Assembly (NCBI GenBank): GCA_035556555.1
Contig: DATMES010000040.1
Span: 1 to 46,341 of the forward strand
Direction of reading: 5' to 3'
Source: Frankiaceae bacterium
GTDB lineage: Bacteria > Actinomycetota > Actinomycetes > BP-191
Length of the DNA: 46,341 nucleotides
Shown here: piece after piece, positions 9,331 to 17,813 of the stretch
Layout of the letters: each line of letters begins with the position of its first letter
Position numbering within the stretch: the first letter of the stretch is position 1
Notes under the pieces: model-generated
Databases searched by the model: none
Told to the model about the DNA's origin: nothing
What the model saw: the letters and a program-made list of their open reading frames with translations, nothing else
Translations under genes and position numbers: made by a program

Positions 9331-10302
9331 GTGCTGACCCGGGTCTACCGCAACGGCGTCCTCGAGGCCGAGGGGTTCGACCCGGCGCGGGTCTCCGACT
9401 ACCTCGACGAGCCCGACACCGTCGTCTGGCTCGACGTCTGCCGGCCCACGCCGGGCGACCTCGCGGTCATCGCCGACGAGCTCGGCCTGCACCCGCTCGC
9501 CCGCGAGGACGCGACGGGGCGGCCGCAGCGGCCGAAGGTGGAGCCGTACGCCGGGCACCAGTTCCTCGTGGCGTACGCCGTGGCGTACGACGCGGGTACG
9601 CGGGAGCTGACGACGTCCGAGGTCGACGTCTTCTTCGACGACCGCTGGCTCGTCACCGTGCGCAAGGAGCCGGTGTTCGAGCTCGACGCGGTGCTCGCGC
9701 AGTGGGAGGCGTCGGCGGCGCTGGCGAAACACGGCACGGCGTACCTCCTCCACGGCCTCCTCGACGTCGTCGTCGAGGGGCACTTCACGGCGATCAGCGC
9801 GCTCGACGACGAGATCGAGGCGCTGGAGGAGGGGCTGTTCGGGGAGGGGTCGGGCGGGATCGAGACGCAGCGGCGGACGTTCGAGCTGCGGAAGGCGCTC
9901 GTGACGCTGCGCCGCGTCGTGCTGCCGATGCGCGAGGTGCTGAACGGCCTCATGCGCAGGGAGCGGTTCGCGATCGACGCCGAGCTGGTGCCGTACTACC
10001 AGGACCTGTACGACCACGTGCTGCGCGCCACCGAGTGGGCCGACTCGCTGCGCGACCTCATCTCGACGCTGCTGGAGACGCACCTGACGATCCAGGGGAA
10101 CCGGCTCAACGAGGTCATGAAGCGGCTGACGTCGTACGCCGCCATCGTCGCGGTGCCGACGGCGGTCGCGGGCATCTACGGCATGAACACCCGCATCTAC
10201 CCGGCGGCGGGGTCGGCGACGGGGTGGTGGTTCGCGCTCGGCCTGATGACCGCGATCTCCGGCTTCCTCTTCTTCTACTTCCGCCGCAAGGACTGGTTGT
10301 AG
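9331..10302 (+). CDS. corA: CorA-type divalent cation channel
   Basis: Magnesium/cobalt transport protein of the CorA family, acting as a pentameric inner-membrane channel. The 323-residue product has a large cytoplasmic N-terminal alpha/beta region, a long helical stalk (about residues 150-265), and two C-terminal membrane helices. The signature YGMN, with GMN at 284-286, sits at the end of the first helix and the chain ends with a basic YFRRKDWL tail. GTG 9331 has no Shine-Dalgarno sequence and probably starts a leaderless message. It is convergent with yajQ, separated by a strong palindrome. Metal specificity cannot be read from the sequence. Confidence 0.9.
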   Translation: MLTRVYRNGVLEAEGFDPARVSDYLDEPDTVVWLDVCRPTPGDLAVIADELGLHPLAREDATGRPQRPKVEPYAGHQFLVAYAVAYDAGTRELTTSEVDVFFDDRWLVTVRKEPVFELDAVLAQWEASAALAKHGTAYLLHGLLDVVVEGHFTAISALDDEIEALEEGLFGEGSGGIETQRRTFELRKALVTLRRVVLPMREVLNGLMRRERFAIDAELVPYYQDLYDHVLRATEWADSLRDLISTLLETHLTIQGNRLNEVMKRLTSYAAIVAVPTAVAGIYGMNTRIYPAAGSATGWWFALGLMTAISGFLFFYFRRKDWL

Positions 10303-10316
10303 ACCCCGCCGCGCGC

Positions 10317-10387
10317 GGTTACTGGTGAGTAGCGACGAACGCCGAGCACGAACTGGTGAGCCGCGACGTCGCTACTCACCAGTAACC
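10317..10387. repeat. Perfect 21-bp inverted repeat between convergent genes
   Basis: Arms 10317-10337 and 10367-10387 are exact reverse complements over 21 bases, separated by 29 bases. Each arm contains TACTGGTGAGTA, itself of the form TACT-N4-AGTA. A further partial copy (ACTGGTGAG) lies in the loop. The site lies between the ends of the convergent corA-type and yajQ genes, so a bidirectional terminator is the simplest role, although no T-run follows on either strand. Confidence 0.7.
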
Positions 10388-10405
10388 TCCGGCCCCGGCC
10401 CCGAG

Positions 10406-10897
10406 CTAGCGGTAGTTGGTGAACTGCAGGGGGATGTCGAAGTCGCTGTCCTTGAGCAGCGCGATGACCGCCTGCAGGTCGTCCTTCTTCTTGCCGGACA
10501 CGCGCAGCTGGTCGCCCTGGATCTGCGCCTGGATGCCCTTCGGGCCCTCCGCGCGGATCTTCTTCGCGATCGCCTTCGCCTTGTCGTCCTCGATGCCCTG
10601 GGCGATGTCGACGGTGAGGCGGGAGGTGTTGCCGCCGGCGGGCTGCGGCTCGCCGTGCTGCAACGCCTTGAGGGAGATCCCGCGCTTGACCAGCTTCTCC
10701 TGGAACACCTCCAGCACGGCCTTCACGCGCGAGTCGGAGTTGCTGCGGATCTCGACCTTCTCGCCCGACCACTCGATCGACGAGCCGGTGTCCTTGAAGT
10801 CGTACCGGTTGGCGATCTCCTTGGCGGCCTGGTTCAGGGCGTTGTCGACCTCCTGGCGGTCCACCTTGCTCACGATGTCGAACGACGGGTCGGCCAC
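10406..10897 (-). CDS. yajQ: YajQ/UPF0234 family nucleotide-binding protein
   Basis: Cytoplasmic protein with two ferredoxin-like folds; members bind nucleotides, and cyclic-di-GMP binding has been shown for a few. The 163-residue product matches the family from end to end: start [20 protein letters not shown], then [19 protein letters not shown], and the tail [15 protein letters not shown] at 10897 is chosen because it begins the conserved N terminus and follows GAGAGGAG on the minus strand; a longer frame continues upstream through the tRNA-Tyr locus and is not credible. Whether it senses the product of the cyclic-di-GMP gene nearby is inference only. Confidence 0.93.
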
Positions 10898-10983
10898 GGC
10901 GGTCGTGCTCCTCTCGAAAGGCGTCGGCGCCCATCCTCTCGCATCCGTTATCCTTCCCCTCGGTCCGGTTCGCCGGACGTCCA

Positions 10984-11065
10984 GGGAGGTTGCCCGAGTG
11001 GCCAAAGGGAGCAGGCTGTAAACCTGTCGGCATCGCCTACGGAGGTTCGAACCCTCCACCTCCCA
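10984..11065 (+). tRNA. tRNA-Tyr (anticodon GTA)
   Basis: Acceptor arms GGGAGGT (10984-10990) and ACCTCCC (11058-11064) pair fully. The T-arm GGAGG-TTCGAAC-CCTCC and the anticodon loop CTGTAAA with anticodon GTA are clear. The 82-nt length comes from a long variable arm, as expected for bacterial tRNA-Tyr. CCA is not encoded. It is divergent from yajQ; a possible -10 (TATCCT, 10949-10954) lies 29 bp upstream. Confidence 0.96.
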
Positions 11066-11075
11066 CCCGACGTAC

Positions 11076-11113
11076 GAACGCCGCGGCCCCCGCACAGGGG
11101 GACCGCGGCGTTC
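11076..11113. terminator. Strong GC hairpin between tRNA-Tyr and the convergent small-protein operon
   Basis: GAACGCCGCGG at 11076-11086 pairs with CCGCGGCGTTC at 11103-11113, and the C- and G-runs inside extend the stem with one bulge around a short loop. The hairpin starts 10 bases after the tRNA and lies 13 bases from the end of the minus-strand operon, so it can terminate both. No T-run follows, as is common for actinobacterial terminators. Confidence 0.7.
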
Positions 11114-11126
11114 GGCGTCAGAGGAC

Positions 11127-11345
11127 CTACGCGGGGCACATCACGATCAGCGACCGCAGGGTCGCCGCGGCGTCCTTCGGGTTGACCTCGGGCTGCATGC
11201 CCATCTGGCAGCGAAGCGCGCAGACGGGGCCCCAGCCGGGCAGCGGGCCCCAGTCGGCGCAGTAGACGCTGGCGTTCGCGGGGCTCGCCGAGGCGAACGA
11301 CGCGGCCGCCGCGGCGGCGAGCAGGAGAGCGGTGGTACGGCGCAT
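11127..11345 (-). CDS. Small secreted four-cysteine protein, copy 3
   Basis: Family not recognised. The 72-residue product has a signal peptide ([20 protein letters not shown], cleavage probably after the following PANA near residue 25) and a mature part of about 47 residues with four cysteines spaced C-x12-C-x3-C-x23-C. It shares the motifs VYCAD, GWGPVC and QPEVNP with the two genes upstream. It is the last gene of a three-gene minus-strand cluster, separated from copy 2 by 17 bp. An even number of cysteines in an exported peptide suggests two disulfides. There are no lipobox, cell-wall anchor or catalytic residues. Role unknown. Confidence 0.75.
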
Positions 11346-11362
11346 GGTGAGGGGATCCTTCG

Positions 11363-11581
11363 CTAGTCGGTGAACAGGCAGGGAGGGAGCTGGCCGCGGA
11401 CGTCGGGCTCGTCCGGGTCGACGTGCGGGTCGGCGCTCGCCGCGCACGTCACGGTGCAGACGGGCCCGTAGCCGGAGCCCTCGATGCCGAGGACGTCGGC
11501 GCAGTAGAGGCCGGCGTTCGCCGCGGGAGCGGACGCGAGGGCGCCACCCGCGAGCACCAGCGCGACCGCGAGGCGGCGCAT
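11363..11581 (-). CDS. Small secreted four-cysteine protein, copy 2
   Basis: Paralogue of its neighbours; function unknown. The 72 residues comprise a signal peptide (MRRLAVALVLAGGALASAPA, then ANA before the likely cleavage site) and a mature chain of about 49 residues with C-x14-C-x3-C-x21-C. Shared motifs are GLYCADVLGI, YGPVCTVTC and DPHVDP. The ATG at 11581 overlaps the stop of copy 1 by one base (TGATG), so the two are translationally coupled. An in-frame ATG seven codons upstream would lie inside copy 1 and give a poorer signal peptide. Confidence 0.78.
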   Translation of the reverse strand: MRRLAVALVLAGGALASAPAANAGLYCADVLGIEGSGYGPVCTVTCAASADPHVDPDEPDVRGQLPPCLFTD

Positions 11582-11805
11582 CAGGCGTCCTCGTCCATGC
11601 ACGAGGGACGGCCGGGGTCGACGGCCGGGTCGCGCGAGGGGTCGACGGACGGGTCGTACTGCCTCGCGCAGGACACCGTGCAGAACGGCGCCTGGCCGGT
11701 GCCGGGGATCCCGTAGAGCTCGTCACAGTAGATGCCCGCGGACGCGGCGGGGGCCAGCGTGCCGGCGAGGCCGGCGAGCAGCAGGAACAGGGTCGTACGG
11801 CGCAT
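11581..11805 (-). CDS. Small secreted four-cysteine protein, copy 1
   Basis: First gene of the minus-strand trio, 74 residues, family not recognised. A signal peptide with hydrophobic core LFLLLAGLAGTLAPAASA precedes a mature chain with C-x14-C-x3-C-x22-C. The segment GIYCDELYGIPGTGQAPFC and the acidic repeat-like DPSVDPSRDPAVDP correspond to motifs in copies 2 and 3. It reads away from the cyclic-di-GMP gene, with which it shares a 282-bp upstream region. The stop overlaps the copy 2 start. Confidence 0.78.
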   Translation of the reverse strand: MRRTTLFLLLAGLAGTLAPAASAGIYCDELYGIPGTGQAPFCTVSCARQYDPSVDPSRDPAVDPGRPSCMDEDA

Positions 11806-11967
11806 GAGGGGTTGGGCCTTCCGGTTGAGGGGGGTTCGTCCGGAATTGTGACGGACACCGGCGTGGCAGGAAAGGTCCGGCAGGCCTCCGGGCTACGTTT
11901 TCCACAACCCACCCCCGAGCACGGGTTGTACGTCATCCTCGAAGGGCGGGGGACGCCCCTGCGTGAC

Positions 11968-11989
11968 GGCTGGGCCGTACGGCCCAGCC
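11968..11989. promoter_or_regulatory. 22-bp perfect palindrome in a divergent promoter region
   Basis: The 22 bases are identical to their own reverse complement (half-site GGCTGGGCCGT). The palindrome lies between the divergently read small-protein operon (start 11805) and the GGDEF-EAL gene (start 12088), 163 and 99 bases from them. A dimeric regulator could use it as operator; a simple stem-loop is the alternative. The rest of the 282-bp gap shows only a weak TATACC (12034-12039). Confidence 0.45.
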
Positions 11990-12087
11990 CGGTTACGCCG
12001 GTCGCGGGCTCATCCCCGCGTCCCAGCGTGCCGTATACCCGTGCAGGGGTGTGTCCTGTTCGACCCTGCCCAGGAACGGAGGCGCGC

Positions 12088-14598
12088 ATGTCGGACGAAG
12101 CCGCGCGCTCCGCCCTGCGCGCAGCCAGCGGCGCCCGCGGGGCGTACGCCCTGTCGTTCGGGCTGCTCGTCGGCGGCGTCTCGCTGACGCTGGGGCCGGT
12201 CGCGGCGCTCGACCCGCTGCGCACCGGCGTCCAGCTCTGGCCCGCGGTCATCGCCGTGCTGACGCTGCTGCTCAGCGCGTCGGCGATCACGCTGCAGTTC
12301 CGCCGCCAGGGCCACACGCTGTCCATGACCGAGATCCCTGTGGCGATCGGGCTGTTCGCGGTGTCGCCGCTCGCGCTCATCGTCGCCAAGGCGGCCGGCC
12401 ACGCGCTCGACGGGGTACGCCGCCGCCTCCCGGTGCACAAGGCCGTCTTCAACGTCTCCCTCGTCATCTTCCAGGTGCCCGTCGCGGTGCTGGTGTTCCG
12501 CGTCGTCGTCGGCGACGACGCGATAGGCCCCCGGGCGTGGCTGGCGGCGTTCGCCGCGGTGCAGACCGCCAACTTCATCTCCGCCGCCGCGATCTTCGCG
12601 GTCATCGGCATCACGCAGGCGCAGGTCGACCGGACCGAGCTCGACGTCGCCGTCGGCAAGTGGTTCGTCGTCAGCCTCGTCGAGACGTCGCTCGCTCTGG
12701 TCGCCGTCGAGGCACTGCGCGAGCAGCCACTGACCGGCTGGCTGCTCGTCGTGGTGGCGTTGCTGCTGCTGTCGTTCACGCGGGCGTACGCCTCGCTGCG
12801 CGACCGTAACGACGAGCTCGCCGCCGTCTACGACTTCGGCCGCAGCGTCGCCGAGCCGGAGGACACCGAGGAGCTGCCGGCGTTCGTGGCCGACAAGGTC
12901 CGCGCGCTGCTGCGCGCCGAGCGCGCCGACGTGCTGCTGGCGTACGACGGCGGGCTCACCTGCTGGCGCGCCGACGACGACGGCGTCGGCGTCGTTCCCG
13001 TCGACGCCGCCGCGTGGCCGTGGCGCGAGGTGCTCGCGACCGGCGCGCCGGTGCTCGGGCCGCGCGGCCGCGACGCCGTGGCGGTCCCGCTGCGCGGCGA
13101 GAACGGGATGGTCGGCATGCTCGCGGCGTACGACCGCATGGGCAACGTCCGGCGGTTCGCGCGCGTGGACGTCCAGCTGCTCGAAGCCCTTGCGGCCCAG
13201 GCAGGCGCGACGCTGGAGAGCGCCCGCCTCGTCGAGCGGCTGCGCCACGAGGCCAACCACGACTCGCTCACGGGGCTCGCCAACTGGACCGGGCTGCGTA
13301 CGTACGCCGACGAGGCCATGCAGGGCGGCGGCCCCGTCGCGCTGGTGCTCATGGACCTCGACCGGTTCAAGGACGTCAACGACACCCTCGGCCACCACAA
13401 CGGCGACGTGCTGCTCCTCGAGCTCAGCGAACGCCTCGCGGCCTACTGCGGCGACCGCCGCCGTGTCGGGCGGCTCGGCGGCGACGAGTTCGCCGTCGTC
13501 CTCAGCGAGGGCGACGACGCCGAGTCCGCGGCGCGGGTCGCGCGCGAGCTGCTCGAGATCGTCGCCGTGCCCGTCGTCCTCGACGGCGTCCGCATCGTCA
13601 TGGCGGCGAGCATCGGCATCGCCGTCCACCCCGAGCACGGCGTCGACGCCGCGTCGTTGCTGCAGCGGGCCGACGTCGCGATGTACGCCGCGAAGACCGG
13701 CCACCTCGGCGTCGCGATGTACCAGCCGACAGAGGACCACGTCTCCGCCCGCCGGCTCGTGCTTGCCGGTGAGCTGCGGCGGGCGATCGACGACGGGACG
13801 CTGTTCGTGGCGTACCAGCCGAAGGCGTCGCTCGAGGACGGCCGCATCCTCGGCGCCGAGGCACTGCTGCGCTGGCACCACCGCGAGCTCGGCTTCGTCG
13901 CGCCGGACGAGTTCATCCCGCTCGCCGAGCGGACCGGGCTCATCGTGCCGCTGACGACGTACGTCCTCGACCGCGCGCTGCGCCAGTGCGCCACGTGGAC
14001 GCGCGAGGGGCTCGACGTCGGCGTCGCCGTCAACATCAGCGTCCGCAACCTCCTCGACAGCGACCTCCCCGACGAGATCGGGGCGCTGCTCGTACGGCAC
14101 GGCGTCGAGCCGCGCAGGCTGACGCTGGAGATCACCGAGTCGTCGGTCATGGCCGACCCCGCGCGCGCCATCGACGTCCTCGAACGCCTCTCCCGCATCG
14201 GCATCCGCCTGTCCGTCGACGACTTCGGGACCGGCTACTCGTCGCTGACGTACCTCAAGCGTCTGCCCGTCGACGAGGTCAAGATCGACAAGTCGTTCGT
14301 GCTGTCGATGGCGACCGACGTGGGCGACGCGGCGATCGTGCGTTCGATCATCGACCTCGGCGTCAGCCTCGGCCTCACCGTCGTCGCGGAGGGCGTCGAG
14401 GACACCCCGACGTGGGAGCGCCTCACCGACCTCGGCTGCGACATCATCCAGGGCTACGGCCTGTGCCGTCCGGTGCCCGCGCAGGAGGTCACCGAGTGGC
14501 TGCACGCCTGGGATCCCGCGACCGCTGTGCGGCGTTCGTCCCGGCCTGTCACGGAGCTCGCGCCGCGGCGGCGGCTGGCGAGGGGGCAGGACACGTAA
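12088..14598 (+). CDS. Membrane GAF-GGDEF-EAL protein (cyclic-di-GMP synthase/phosphodiesterase)
   Basis: 836-residue signalling protein for cyclic-di-GMP turnover at the membrane. About seven hydrophobic segments occupy residues 20-235, followed by a GAF-like region (about 250-385). The diguanylate cyclase domain has MDLDRFKDVNDTLGHHNGD and an intact GGDEF at 465-469. The phosphodiesterase domain has EALLRW with E591, then ITES, DDFGTGYSSL, KIDKSF and AEGVED, so both active sites look complete. No RxxD inhibitory site is seen just before GGDEF. ATG 12088 is preceded by GGAGG; the longer open frame upstream is rejected. Which activity dominates cannot be read. It ends 48 bp before tRNA-Thr. 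Confidence 0.92.
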   Translation: MSDEAARSALRAASGARGAYALSFGLLVGGVSLTLGPVAALDPLRTGVQLWPAVIAVLTLLLSASAITLQFRRQGHTLSMTEIPVAIGLFAVSPLALIVAKAAGHALDGVRRRLPVHKAVFNVSLVIFQVPVAVLVFRVVVGDDAIGPRAWLAAFAAVQTANFISAAAIFAVIGITQAQVDRTELDVAVGKWFVVSLVETSLALVAVEALREQPLTGWLLVVVALLLLSFTRAYASLRDRNDELAAVYDFGRSVAEPEDTEELPAFVADKVRALLRAERADVLLAYDGGLTCWRADDDGVGVVPVDAAAWPWREVLATGAPVLGPRGRDAVAVPLRGENGMVGMLAAYDRMGNVRRFARVDVQLLEALAAQAGATLESARLVERLRHEANHDSLTGLANWTGLRTYADEAMQGGGPVALVLMDLDRFKDVNDTLGHHNGDVLLLELSERLAAYCGDRRRVGRLGGDEFAVVLSEGDDAESAARVARELLEIVAVPVVLDGVRIVMAASIGIAVHPEHGVDAASLLQRADVAMYAAKTGHLGVAMYQPTEDHVSARRLVLAGELRRAIDDGTLFVAYQPKASLEDGRILGAEALLRWHHRELGFVAPDEFIPLAERTGLIVPLTTYVLDRALRQCATWTREGLDVGVAVNISVRNLLDSDLPDEIGALLVRHGVEPRRLTLEITESSVMADPARAIDVLERLSRIGIRLSVDDFGTGYSSLTYLKRLPVDEVKIDKSFVLSMATDVGDAAIVRSIIDLGVSLGLTVVAEGVEDTPTWERLTDLGCDIIQGYGLCRPVPAQEVTEWLHAWDPATAVRRSSRPVTELAPRRRLARGQDT

Positions 14599-15019: not shown

Positions 15020-15670
15020 GTGGTCGTGGTATCTCCTCGTGCGGCGCGCGGTCTGCCGCCGCGGCTCGCCCAGCGCGACAACGCCGTCGTGCGCCCGCGC
15101 GACGCCGCCGACGTCTACGTCAACCCGCACGCCGAGTTCGCGCGGCTCGTCGACAACGGGCTGTTGCTGCGCGTGGCTCCTGGCAGCTACGCGATCGTTC
15201 CGCGGCCGTGGGTCGGCCGGGTCTGGCGTCCCGATCTGGCGGCGGTCGCGCTCGGCATCGCACAGGCCGACTACGGCCGCGACGCCGTCGCGCTGACGAA
15301 CGTCAGCGCCGCACGCCACCACGGCGCGATCCCGCGTGCGCTGGCGACGGCGACCGTGGCGGTTCCCACCCAGCGGCCGCCGTTGCGCGTCGGCGACGGC
15401 ACTGTCCACTTCACCCAGCGCACCGTCGCGCGGATCGACGTCGAGGCGGTCGAGACGGAGATCACCGCGGGTTGGGTGACGACGGTCGAGCAGACGCTGC
15501 TCGACCTGGCGGCGCGCCCCACGTTCGGCGGGGTCGAGCCCGGGCAGGCAGACGAGGCGATCCGGGTGCTCGCCGCGCGCGCCGACTGGGACCGCGTCAC
15601 CGCGCTCGCGCGTCCGCAGCACAAGCTGAAGGCGATGGCGTACGCCCAGCGCGTCGCCGAGGCGTCCTGA
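15020..15670 (+). CDS. AbiEi-like antitoxin / transcriptional regulator
   Basis: Probable antitoxin of a type IV AbiE toxin-antitoxin pair. The 216-residue product has an N-terminal region with the family-like sequence ARLVDNGLLLRVAPGSYAIVP, matching the winged-helix end of AbiEi proteins. A C-terminal region (about residues 90-216) with TNVSAARHHGAIPR and ETEITAGWVTTVEQTLLDLA resembles the AbiEi C-terminal domain. The GTG at 15020 lacks a Shine-Dalgarno sequence; a purine-rich GGAGGAGGA (14979-14987) is too far upstream. A palindrome ACCCTAGGGT (15012-15021) overlaps the start, which would fit autorepression. The partner gene begins one base after the stop. It interrupts the tRNA-Met to rpmG synteny. 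Confidence 0.75.
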   Translation: MVVVSPRAARGLPPRLAQRDNAVVRPRDAADVYVNPHAEFARLVDNGLLLRVAPGSYAIVPRPWVGRVWRPDLAAVALGIAQADYGRDAVALTNVSAARHHGAIPRALATATVAVPTQRPPLRVGDGTVHFTQRTVARIDVEAVETEITAGWVTTVEQTLLDLAARPTFGGVEPGQADEAIRVLAARADWDRVTALARPQHKLKAMAYAQRVAEAS

Positions 15671-15671
15671 C

Positions 15672-16406
15672 GTGCTCGACCCGCGCGAGCTCAGGGAGGT
15701 CGCGGAACGCTTCGGTGTCGCGGAGGACCAGGTACGCCGCGACCACCTCGTCAGCCATGTCCTGGCGGCGGTCTCACGCCTCGCCCCGGCCGCCGTCTTC
15801 TTCGGCGGTACGGCGCTCGCGCGGACTCACCTGCCCGCCGGCCGGCTGTCGGAAGACGTCGACCTCTACGCCGCGCGGCGTCGCGACGTCGCGCGGGCAC
15901 TCACGACGGGCATCCCGTCGGCGCTCCGCAGGGAGTTCCCGCGCCTGGCCTGGGACCCGGCGCCGGAGGACGTGGCGGACAACGGCACGGCGCTTCTCCT
16001 CGCCGAGCGCGTGCCGCCAGTTCGGTTGCAGGTGCTCGACGGCACCGGGTACGCCCTCTGGCCCACCGAGCGCAGGTCCGTGGACACGCGCTACGCGGAC
16101 GTGCCGGCCGCGACTCTGACCGTCCCTACGCGAGCGTCGTTCGTCGGGATGAAGCTCTGGGCCTGGGGTGACCGGCGCGCCGCCCGCGACCTCTACGACC
16201 TGTGGTCGCTCGCGACGATCGGCGCGGTCGACGCCGACGCGGTCGCTGCCTACGAGGCCGCCGTGGGCTACCGGCCGCCGCTGTCGGTCTTCGACCGCGT
16301 GCCGGACGCGGAGGAGTGGCGTACGGCGCTGGCGCACCAGACCGCGGTCCTGCCGGACGTCGCTGGGGCCGTCGCCGCCGTCCGGGCCGCGCTCACCGCT
16401 GTCTGA
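15672..16406 (+). CDS. AbiEii-like nucleotidyltransferase toxin
   Basis: Probable toxin of the AbiE pair; family members are nucleotidyltransferases. The 244-residue product has the nucleotidyltransferase motifs GGTALAR (residues 45-51) and SEDVDLY with D62 and D64 as metal ligands. The later motif KLWAWGDRRAARDLYDLW corresponds to the conserved K...RxKDxxDL segment, here with RAARDLYDL. GTG at 15672 is one base after the antitoxin stop, so the two are co-translated. The active-site residues look intact. It ends inside the likely rpmG promoter region. Confidence 0.82.
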   Translation: MLDPRELREVAERFGVAEDQVRRDHLVSHVLAAVSRLAPAAVFFGGTALARTHLPAGRLSEDVDLYAARRRDVARALTTGIPSALRREFPRLAWDPAPEDVADNGTALLLAERVPPVRLQVLDGTGYALWPTERRSVDTRYADVPAATLTVPTRASFVGMKLWAWGDRRAARDLYDLWSLATIGAVDADAVAAYEAAVGYRPPLSVFDRVPDAEEWRTALAHQTAVLPDVAGAVAAVRAALTAV

Positions 16407-16727: not shown

Positions 16728-17813
16728 GTGGACTGGGACGCCTACATCGCCGCGGGGCTGTACGACCCCGCCGCGCCCAGCGCCGCTGACCGCCGCGACC
16801 TCATCGAGTTCCTCGTCGCCGAGGGCTGCACGCTCGACGAGATGGTCGCCGCGCACGAGCGCGGCAGGCTCTTCGGCCTCGCGGGCGACAGGAAGGTACG
16901 CCCTGGCCGCGAGGAGCTCACGCTCCGCGAAGCCGCCGCGATCACCGGCACCGACCTGGACCTCGTCGTCAGGCTCTGGCAGGCGTACGGCCTCCCGATC
17001 GTCGACCCCGACACCAAGGTCGCGAGTCGCGCGGACGTCGAGACGCTGCCCCTGTTCGCCGCCATCGCCGAGCTCCTCGGCGACGATGCCGCGCTCAACC
17101 TGGCCCGCGTCGCGGGCGCGAGCGTCGCGAGGTTCGCCGAGGCCGTCTCCGCGGCGATGCGCAGCTCGGTGCGCGAGCTCGCGCTCGACACGAGCGGCAG
17201 CGAGACGGCGACCGCCAAGTCGTACGCCGGCCTGGCCGAGCTGACGCCGCAGGTCGGCCGCATGCTCGACGTGCTCCTGCGCCACCACCTCGAGGCGGCC
17301 CGCAGGCAGTTCGAGCAGTCCGACAGCAACGACGTCGCGCTGCTCGGGCAGATCCGCGCCGCGGTGGCGTTCGCTGACGTCAGCGGCTTCACGGCGCTGT
17401 CGCAGGTCTCCACGAGCGCCGAGCTGGCGGCGATGCTGACCCGCTTCGAACGCACCGCCACCGCGCTGGTCACCGAGGCCGACGGCCGTGTCGTGAAGTT
17501 CATCGGCGACGCCGTCATGTACGTCACCGCGCAGCCGGCCACGGCGGTCGACGTCGCCCAGCGCCTCGTCGGCGCAGCCGACCATCCCGTCAGGGCCGGC
17601 GTCGCGTACGGCCTCCTGCTGGCCCAGGACGGCGACTTCTTCGGCCCGCCGGTCAACCTCGCCGCCCGCCTGGTCACCGTTGCCGAGCCCGGTCAGGTCC
17701 TCGTGGACGGCGCCGCGCGGGACCGCCTGCCCGGCAGCACAGCCACCACCGCGCTGCCGCCGAAGACCCTGCGCGGCATCGCCGACGACGTGACTCCGTA
17801 CGTCGTGGGGTAG
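16728..17813 (+). CDS. Class III adenylate cyclase with N-terminal regulatory domain
   Basis: Makes cAMP from ATP. The 361-residue soluble protein has an N-terminal helical domain (about residues 1-195) like the regulatory domain of Rv1264-type mycobacterial cyclases, including a HTH-like stretch LTLREAAAITGTDLDLVVRL. A C-terminal catalytic domain follows. Catalytic residues are present: metal aspartates D217 (FADVSGFT) and D261 (KFIGDAV), adenine-specifying K257, and transition-state N310 and R314 (PVNLAARL). GTG 16728 has no Shine-Dalgarno; CAGAAT ends six bases upstream, so a leaderless message is likely. Regulation by pH or fatty acids, known for Rv1264, is only a possibility here. Confidence 0.88.
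   Translation: MDWDAYIAAGLYDPAAPSAADRRDLIEFLVAEGCTLDEMVAAHERGRLFGLAGDRKVRPGREELTLREAAAITGTDLDLVVRLWQAYGLPIVDPDTKVASRADVETLPLFAAIAELLGDDAALNLARVAGASVARFAEAVSAAMRSSVRELALDTSGSETATAKSYAGLAELTPQVGRMLDVLLRHHLEAARRQFEQSDSNDVALLGQIRAAVAFADVSGFTALSQVSTSAELAAMLTRFERTATALVTEADGRVVKFIGDAVMYVTAQPATAVDVAQRLVGAADHPVRAGVAYGLLLAQDGDFFGPPVNLAARLVTVAEPGQVLVDGAARDRLPGSTATTALPPKTLRGIADDVTPYVVG

What the first reader, a model, noticed from the sequence alone, without database searches (positions are those of the whole stretch)
11127..11805. Three tandem paralogous genes for tiny exported four-cysteine proteins
Three minus-strand genes of 72-74 codons each encode a signal peptide and a mature chain of about 47-51 residues with the pattern C-x12-14-C-x3-C-x21-23-C. 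Shared motifs are [IVL]YC, G-x-x-P-[FV]-C and [DQ]P-x-V-[DN]P. Genes 1 and 2 are coupled by a TGATG overlap. Tandem duplication with diverged sequence but fixed cysteines suggests a selected disulfide-bonded peptide family, perhaps a toxin, signal or envelope peptide. I do not recognise the family.
Basis: partly seen in the sequence, partly recalled or inferred. Interest (0 to 1): 0.68.

Follow-up and report, generated by a model that had tools for sequence, protein, structure and literature searches.

The report
Hypervariable tiny exported cysteine-peptide gene arrays
Three neighbouring genes make tiny exported proteins held to a fixed set of four cysteines, and they turn out to be one of dozens of fast-changing, copy-number-variable arrays of such mini-proteins found only in one small group of actinobacteria; what they do is unknown.

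Summary
Three genes (74, 72, 72 codons; minus strand 11805-11127) have clean coding statistics, Sec-type signal peptides and mature chains with cysteine spacings 14-3-22, 14-3-21 and 12-3-23. The TGATG overlap is real and the mature parts are homologous beyond chance. A sister species has one copy at the same place; a third has none there. No relative was found in hundreds of other actinobacterial genomes, phages, plasmids, Pfam or NCBIfam.

The larger result lies outside the coordinates. The three available genomes of this order carry many similar genes each, singly or in tandem arrays of 2-10 between housekeeping genes. At the same site, copy number differs between species (10/4/2, 3/1/0, 2/6). 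Signal peptides are fairly conserved, mature chains very variable, and cysteine number almost always even (61 of 64 loci). My best explanation: a birth-and-death repertoire of secreted disulfide mini-proteins facing variable outside targets. The pattern is well supported; the function is inferred, not shown. The usual actinobacterial disulfide enzyme VKOR was not found, and the link between the window family and the six-cysteine families is only suggestive.

The parts
11581..11805 (-). peptide gene A (first in the operon): signal peptide plus mature GIYCDELYGIPGTGQAPFCTVSCARQYDPSVDPSRDPAVDPGRPSCMDEDA
   Evidence: SD-like GGAAGG upstream
11363..11581 (-). peptide gene B, start overlaps stop of A (TGATG); mature GLYCADVLGIEGSGYGPVCTVTCAASADPHVDPDEPDVRGQLPPCLFTD
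11127..11345 (-). peptide gene C, 17 bases after B; mature [47 protein letters not shown]
11075..11115 (-). strong GC-rich hairpin just downstream of gene C, terminator-like but without a T run; lies between the array and tRNA-Tyr
   Evidence: -53.5 kcal/mol for the 81-nt stretch, z -4.5
11806..12087 (.). intergenic region shared with the divergent GGDEF-EAL gene; holds the leader motif CCCCTCA (minus strand, 11826-11832) at -27 from gene A
12088..14598 (+). divergent neighbour: GAF-GGDEF-EAL protein, present beside the array in the sister genome and missing from this place, together with the array, in the third
10984..11067 (+). tRNA-Tyr, left border of the variable block
   Evidence: same border in L008 and L211
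10406..10897 (-). YajQ-like gene, conserved left anchor for synteny

Best explanation
The three genes form one small operon encoding Sec-exported mini-proteins of about 50 residues, probably held by two disulfides. They belong to a genus-wide repertoire of such genes and arrays that turns over by tandem duplication and loss: the signal peptide and the cysteine framework are kept while the rest of the mature chain changes quickly. The most likely role is outward-facing: secreted or surface-bound binding peptides (inhibitors, antagonists or recognition molecules) acting on variable external targets such as competitors, predators, phages or a host. Shown here: coding, homology within the array, restriction to the genus, array structure, copy-number turnover at fixed sites, even cysteine number, and fast divergence of the mature part. 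Inferred: disulfides, secretion beyond the membrane, and the target. Untested: any activity.
For: Arrays at syntenic sites with differing copy number: ppdK site 10/4/2 in G000/G002/G001; yajQ-GGDEF site 3/1/0; ilvE-FAH-gltX site 2/6 in G000/G002; kgd site 5/4 in G000/G002. A 15-sequence profile gives 45, 40 and 19 matches (E<=0.1, many resting mainly on the signal peptide) in the three genomes, against one weak match in each of 3 of 294 other class genomes at E<=0.001. In stretches not chosen for hits, 8 such genes in 634 kb of the window's genome against 1 in 1.49 Mb of other actinobacteria (p=4e-4). Cysteine number even in 61 of 64 loci, one gene per locus (p=5e-15). Nonsynonymous divergence over 15 chosen pairs: mature 0.39 (cysteines excluded), signal peptide 0.21, against 0.06-0.08 for conserved housekeeping genes between G000 and G002. 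An acidic mean charge (-2.3) suits soluble binding proteins better than membrane-active cationic peptides.
Against: No immunity gene, dedicated exporter or modification enzyme recurs at the arrays inspected. The synonymous rate is capped by the extreme third-position GC, so pN/pS near 1.2 does not prove positive selection. VKOR (PF07884) was not found in any of the three genomes, and the DsbA-like Thioredoxin_4 (PF13462) only in G001, so the oxidising machinery is unidentified. A structure model of gene B's mature chain was poor (pLDDT 59). The peptides fall into several families with no proven common origin apart from similar signal peptides.
Confidence: 0.4

Rival explanations
1. Structural envelope or coat components: small disulfide proteins that decorate the cell wall, filament or spore surface, as chaplins do in Streptomyces, with loose sequence constraint rather than an arms race.
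For: Many paralogues, small size, no partner genes; a leader motif shared with larger exported proteins of the same genomes suggests one general exported-protein expression programme.
Against: Copy number and sequence differ strongly between congeners at the same site; no chaplin or other coat family match in Pfam.
Confidence: 0.25
2. Bacteriocin-like toxins against close competitors.
For: Hypervariable, tandem, lineage-specific, small, cysteine-framed; the window's genome also carries lanthipeptide-like precursors.
Against: No recurrent immunity or export gene; arrays consist of peptides only; acidic mean charge and 1.5% lysine.
Confidence: 0.15
3. Metal- or cofactor-binding exported peptides: the even cysteines chelate metal rather than form disulfides.
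For: C-x3-C pairs; the two disulfide-enzyme models tried were not found in the window's genome.
Against: Cysteine spacing varies widely between families and two-cysteine members are common, which suits disulfides better than one kind of metal site.
Confidence: 0.1
4. Near-neutral by-products: signal-peptide cassettes that duplicate easily and drift, with little function in the mature part.
For: Mature pN close to pS, rapid gain and loss, no conserved partner.
Against: Intact frames and very high third-position GC throughout, cysteines kept while other residues change, even-number rule.
Confidence: 0.1

Closest known systems
Eukaryotic hypervariable secreted cysteine peptide families (conotoxins, nodule NCR peptides, defensin-like genes); from general knowledge
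   Same: Conserved signal peptide, fixed cysteine framework, fast-changing mature part, tandem arrays, birth-and-death
   Different: Bacterial, acidic, no sequence match at curated cut-off (best: AtDEF-like PF25052 for one relative, 17.4 bits against a 25-bit cut-off)
Chaplins of Streptomyces (from general knowledge)
   Same: Small exported actinobacterial paralogues, some with two cysteines
   Different: No Pfam match; four or six cysteines common; arrays vary between congeners
Small secreted disulfide inhibitors of actinobacteria (tendamistat, Streptomyces subtilisin inhibitor, I36 inhibitors; from general knowledge)
   Same: Sec-exported, small, disulfide-held; plausible mode of action
   Different: No Pfam match; no inhibitory activity known
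Class I/II bacteriocins and lanthipeptides (from general knowledge)
   Same: Small exported peptides with cysteines
   Different: Ordinary Sec signal peptide, not a double-glycine or lanthipeptide leader; no modification, immunity or ABC genes beside the arrays inspected

Membership tests
Defensin-like (AtDEF-like, PF25052) | Pfam match above curated cut-off | tested here: not met
   Best 17.4 bits against 25 for a relative (L144); no match for the window genes
Chaplins | Match to a chaplin domain model | tested here: not met
   No such family among Pfam hits
Actinobacterial alpha-amylase or protease inhibitors (tendamistat, SSI, I36) | Match to the Pfam inhibitor families | tested here: not met
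   None listed up to E=10 for the window genes or E=1 for relatives
Actinobacterial alpha-amylase or protease inhibitors (tendamistat, SSI, I36) | Inhibitory activity | not testable with these tools
   Needs purified peptide
Bacteriocin systems | Neighbouring immunity, export or maturation genes | tested here: not met
   Neighbours are housekeeping genes or the GGDEF-EAL gene
Phage-borne genes | Relatives in phage genomes or phage protein families | tested here: not met
   No match in phage records for gene A or in PHROGs for genes A and C
Hypervariable secreted disulfide peptide repertoire (as a way of working) | Tandem arrays with copy-number turnover, signal peptide slower than mature part, cysteines kept | tested here: met
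Hypervariable secreted disulfide peptide repertoire (as a way of working) | Disulfide bonds present | tested here: inconclusive
   Even cysteine number in 61 of 64 loci, but VKOR not found and PF13462 only in G001
Six-cysteine family of the same genus (G000:C65, G001:C64, G002:C21) | Homology of mature parts to the window family | tested here: inconclusive
   Gene A against C65a beats all 2000 cysteine-preserving shuffles, but gene B and the sister copy do not (45 and 49 of 2000 reach the score); profile E=0.12

The most novel reading that the evidence does not exclude
A bacterial lineage has evolved, on its own, a conotoxin/NCR-like system: dozens of hypervariable secreted disulfide mini-proteins in birth-and-death arrays, diversified by selection from outside partners.
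Probability: 0.35. Interest if true: 0.85.

Novelty: new variant of a known kind. Interest (0 to 1): 0.62.

Why it matters
Large, rapidly diversifying families of secreted cysteine mini-proteins are a hallmark of animal venoms and plant defence; I know of no bacterial genome organised this way, and none turned up in the open-access literature searched. If real and functional, it is a natural library of small stable scaffolds and a bacterial recognition or arms-race system that can be tested with genetics.

Tried and rejected
Known families: Pfam, NCBIfam, PHROGs, PADLOC, PDB by sequence; the PDB profile hits to antibody heavy chains and photosystem subunits look like chance. Mobile origin: no phage or plasmid match; a viral-contig scan could not be run because the alignment was too diverged. 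Matches outside the genus: loci L105, L240-L242 and L308-L312 were inspected and hold either nothing of the kind or unrelated exported proteins matched by the signal peptide. A direct genome-contig scan with the three-gene alignment confirmed no relative. Structure: one low-confidence model, hence no fold search; the rules for structure jobs exclude the better relatives found in whole genomes. Positive selection: not claimed, because third-position GC limits synonymous change. A special promoter for the arrays: the CCCCT[CA] leader motif is strongly enriched (24/66 peptide loci vs 34/977 other genes) but also occurs before larger exported proteins, so it is not specific. My first idea, that the window family is a six-cysteine family that lost the second and fifth cysteines as a pair, was downgraded.

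Full report
Observation. Spacings of the four cysteines are 14-3-22, 14-3-21 and 12-3-23. Gene A overlaps gene B by TGATG; B and C are 17 bases apart; A and C have purine-rich ribosome-binding sites. A strong hairpin follows C. The mature parts are homologous: each pair scores above all 2000 shuffles that hold cysteines in place.

Host and place. The window is one contig of a 3.98-Mb draft genome whose order holds only two other genomes in the collection, both of the same genus. The nearest named record by YajQ is 'Frankiaceae bacterium BP_191' (L019, 90%), and the third genome, G001, shows the same arrangement there. The array sits between yajQ/tRNA-Tyr and a divergent GAF-GGDEF-EAL gene. G002 has a single homologue at the same place, with the same four cysteines and the GGDEF-EAL gene beside it. 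In G001, tRNA-Tyr is followed directly by tRNA-Thr: array and GGDEF-EAL gene are both missing from that place. Whether this is loss in G001 or gain in the others cannot be told from three genomes.

Distribution. The window family's profile finds nothing convincing elsewhere: among 294 other class genomes one weak match, which is not a relative on inspection, and among 396 phylum genomes only the window's own. There are no phage or plasmid matches and no curated protein family.

The wider pattern. A scan for tiny exported reading frames with cysteines, checked by third-position GC and ribosome-binding site, showed many more arrays in the same three genomes. In stretches not chosen for hits, the window's genome has 8 in 634 kb against 1 in 1.49 Mb of other actinobacteria (p=4e-4); the smaller unselected samples of G002 and G001 (115 and 69 kb) held none. 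With targeted stretches added, 51, 41 and 14 distinct genes were catalogued in G000, G002 and G001; sampling was uneven, so these are rough and probably lower bounds. A 15-sequence profile gives 45, 40 and 19 matches at E<=0.1, many resting mainly on the signal peptide, and one weak match in each of 3 of 294 other class genomes. A profile of the ppdK-site array gives 12, 4 and 2 at E<=0.001, with single weak matches in five others that on inspection were not relatives.

Turnover. At fixed sites the arrays differ between congeners: ten genes beside ppdK in G000, four in G002 and two in G001; two against six at ilvE-FAH-gltX; five against four at kgd; three, one and none at yajQ. A six-cysteine array lies beside the same FAD oxidase and STAS genes in G000 (two copies) and G001 (three), and G002 has two related copies near a contig end.

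Sequence evolution. Over 15 chosen pairs of array members, pN is 0.39 in mature parts with cysteines excluded and 0.21 in signal peptides; conserved housekeeping genes between G000 and G002 give 0.06-0.08. Synonymous change is held low by codon bias, so pN/pS of 1.2 is not proof of positive selection. Pairs were picked for alignability and are not independent.

Cysteines. Taking one gene per locus, 61 of 64 have an even number. Even cysteine number is used in the literature to predict disulfides in exported mycobacterial proteins (PMC12421883). Against this, VKOR, the usual partner in actinobacteria, was not found in any of the three genomes, and the DsbA-like model PF13462 matched only G001. 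Other oxidases were not searched.

Interpretation. I favour a repertoire of secreted disulfide mini-proteins facing variable external partners. Coding, array structure and turnover are shown by sequence; disulfides and secretion beyond the membrane are inferred; the target is a guess. Structural coat proteins are the main rival. Filing under any known family is not supported.

Limits. The signal peptide test is my own rule set, not a trained predictor. The genomes are drafts; the window's own is estimated 99.9% complete with 1.7% contamination. Literature was searched only in an open-access library.

Noticed in passing
G000:C33 (L296:9469-11643): Ten tandem tiny exported four-cysteine genes beside ppdK, the largest array seen; four in G002 and two in G001 at the same site.
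   Followed up: yes
window 11826-11832 (minus) and many of 66 peptide loci: A CCCCT[CA] motif just upstream of the ribosome-binding site is enriched before these genes and also before larger exported proteins of the genus; it could be a promoter or leader element of an exported-protein programme.
   Followed up: partly
L299 (G000:C17) 9345-11875: Small genes with lanthipeptide-type leaders (NF038153; one above cut-off, two below) near a trypsin-like protease gene.
   Followed up: partly
window 15089-16406: AbiEi/AbiEii type IV toxin-antitoxin pair just past the tRNA-Thr and tRNA-Met genes.
   Followed up: no
three genomes of the order: No VKOR match in any, and Thioredoxin_4 only in G001, although exported even-cysteine proteins abound; the oxidising route is unexplained.
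   Followed up: partly
window 16728-17813: Adenylate/guanylate cyclase catalytic domain with an adenylate cyclase regulatory domain.
   Followed up: no
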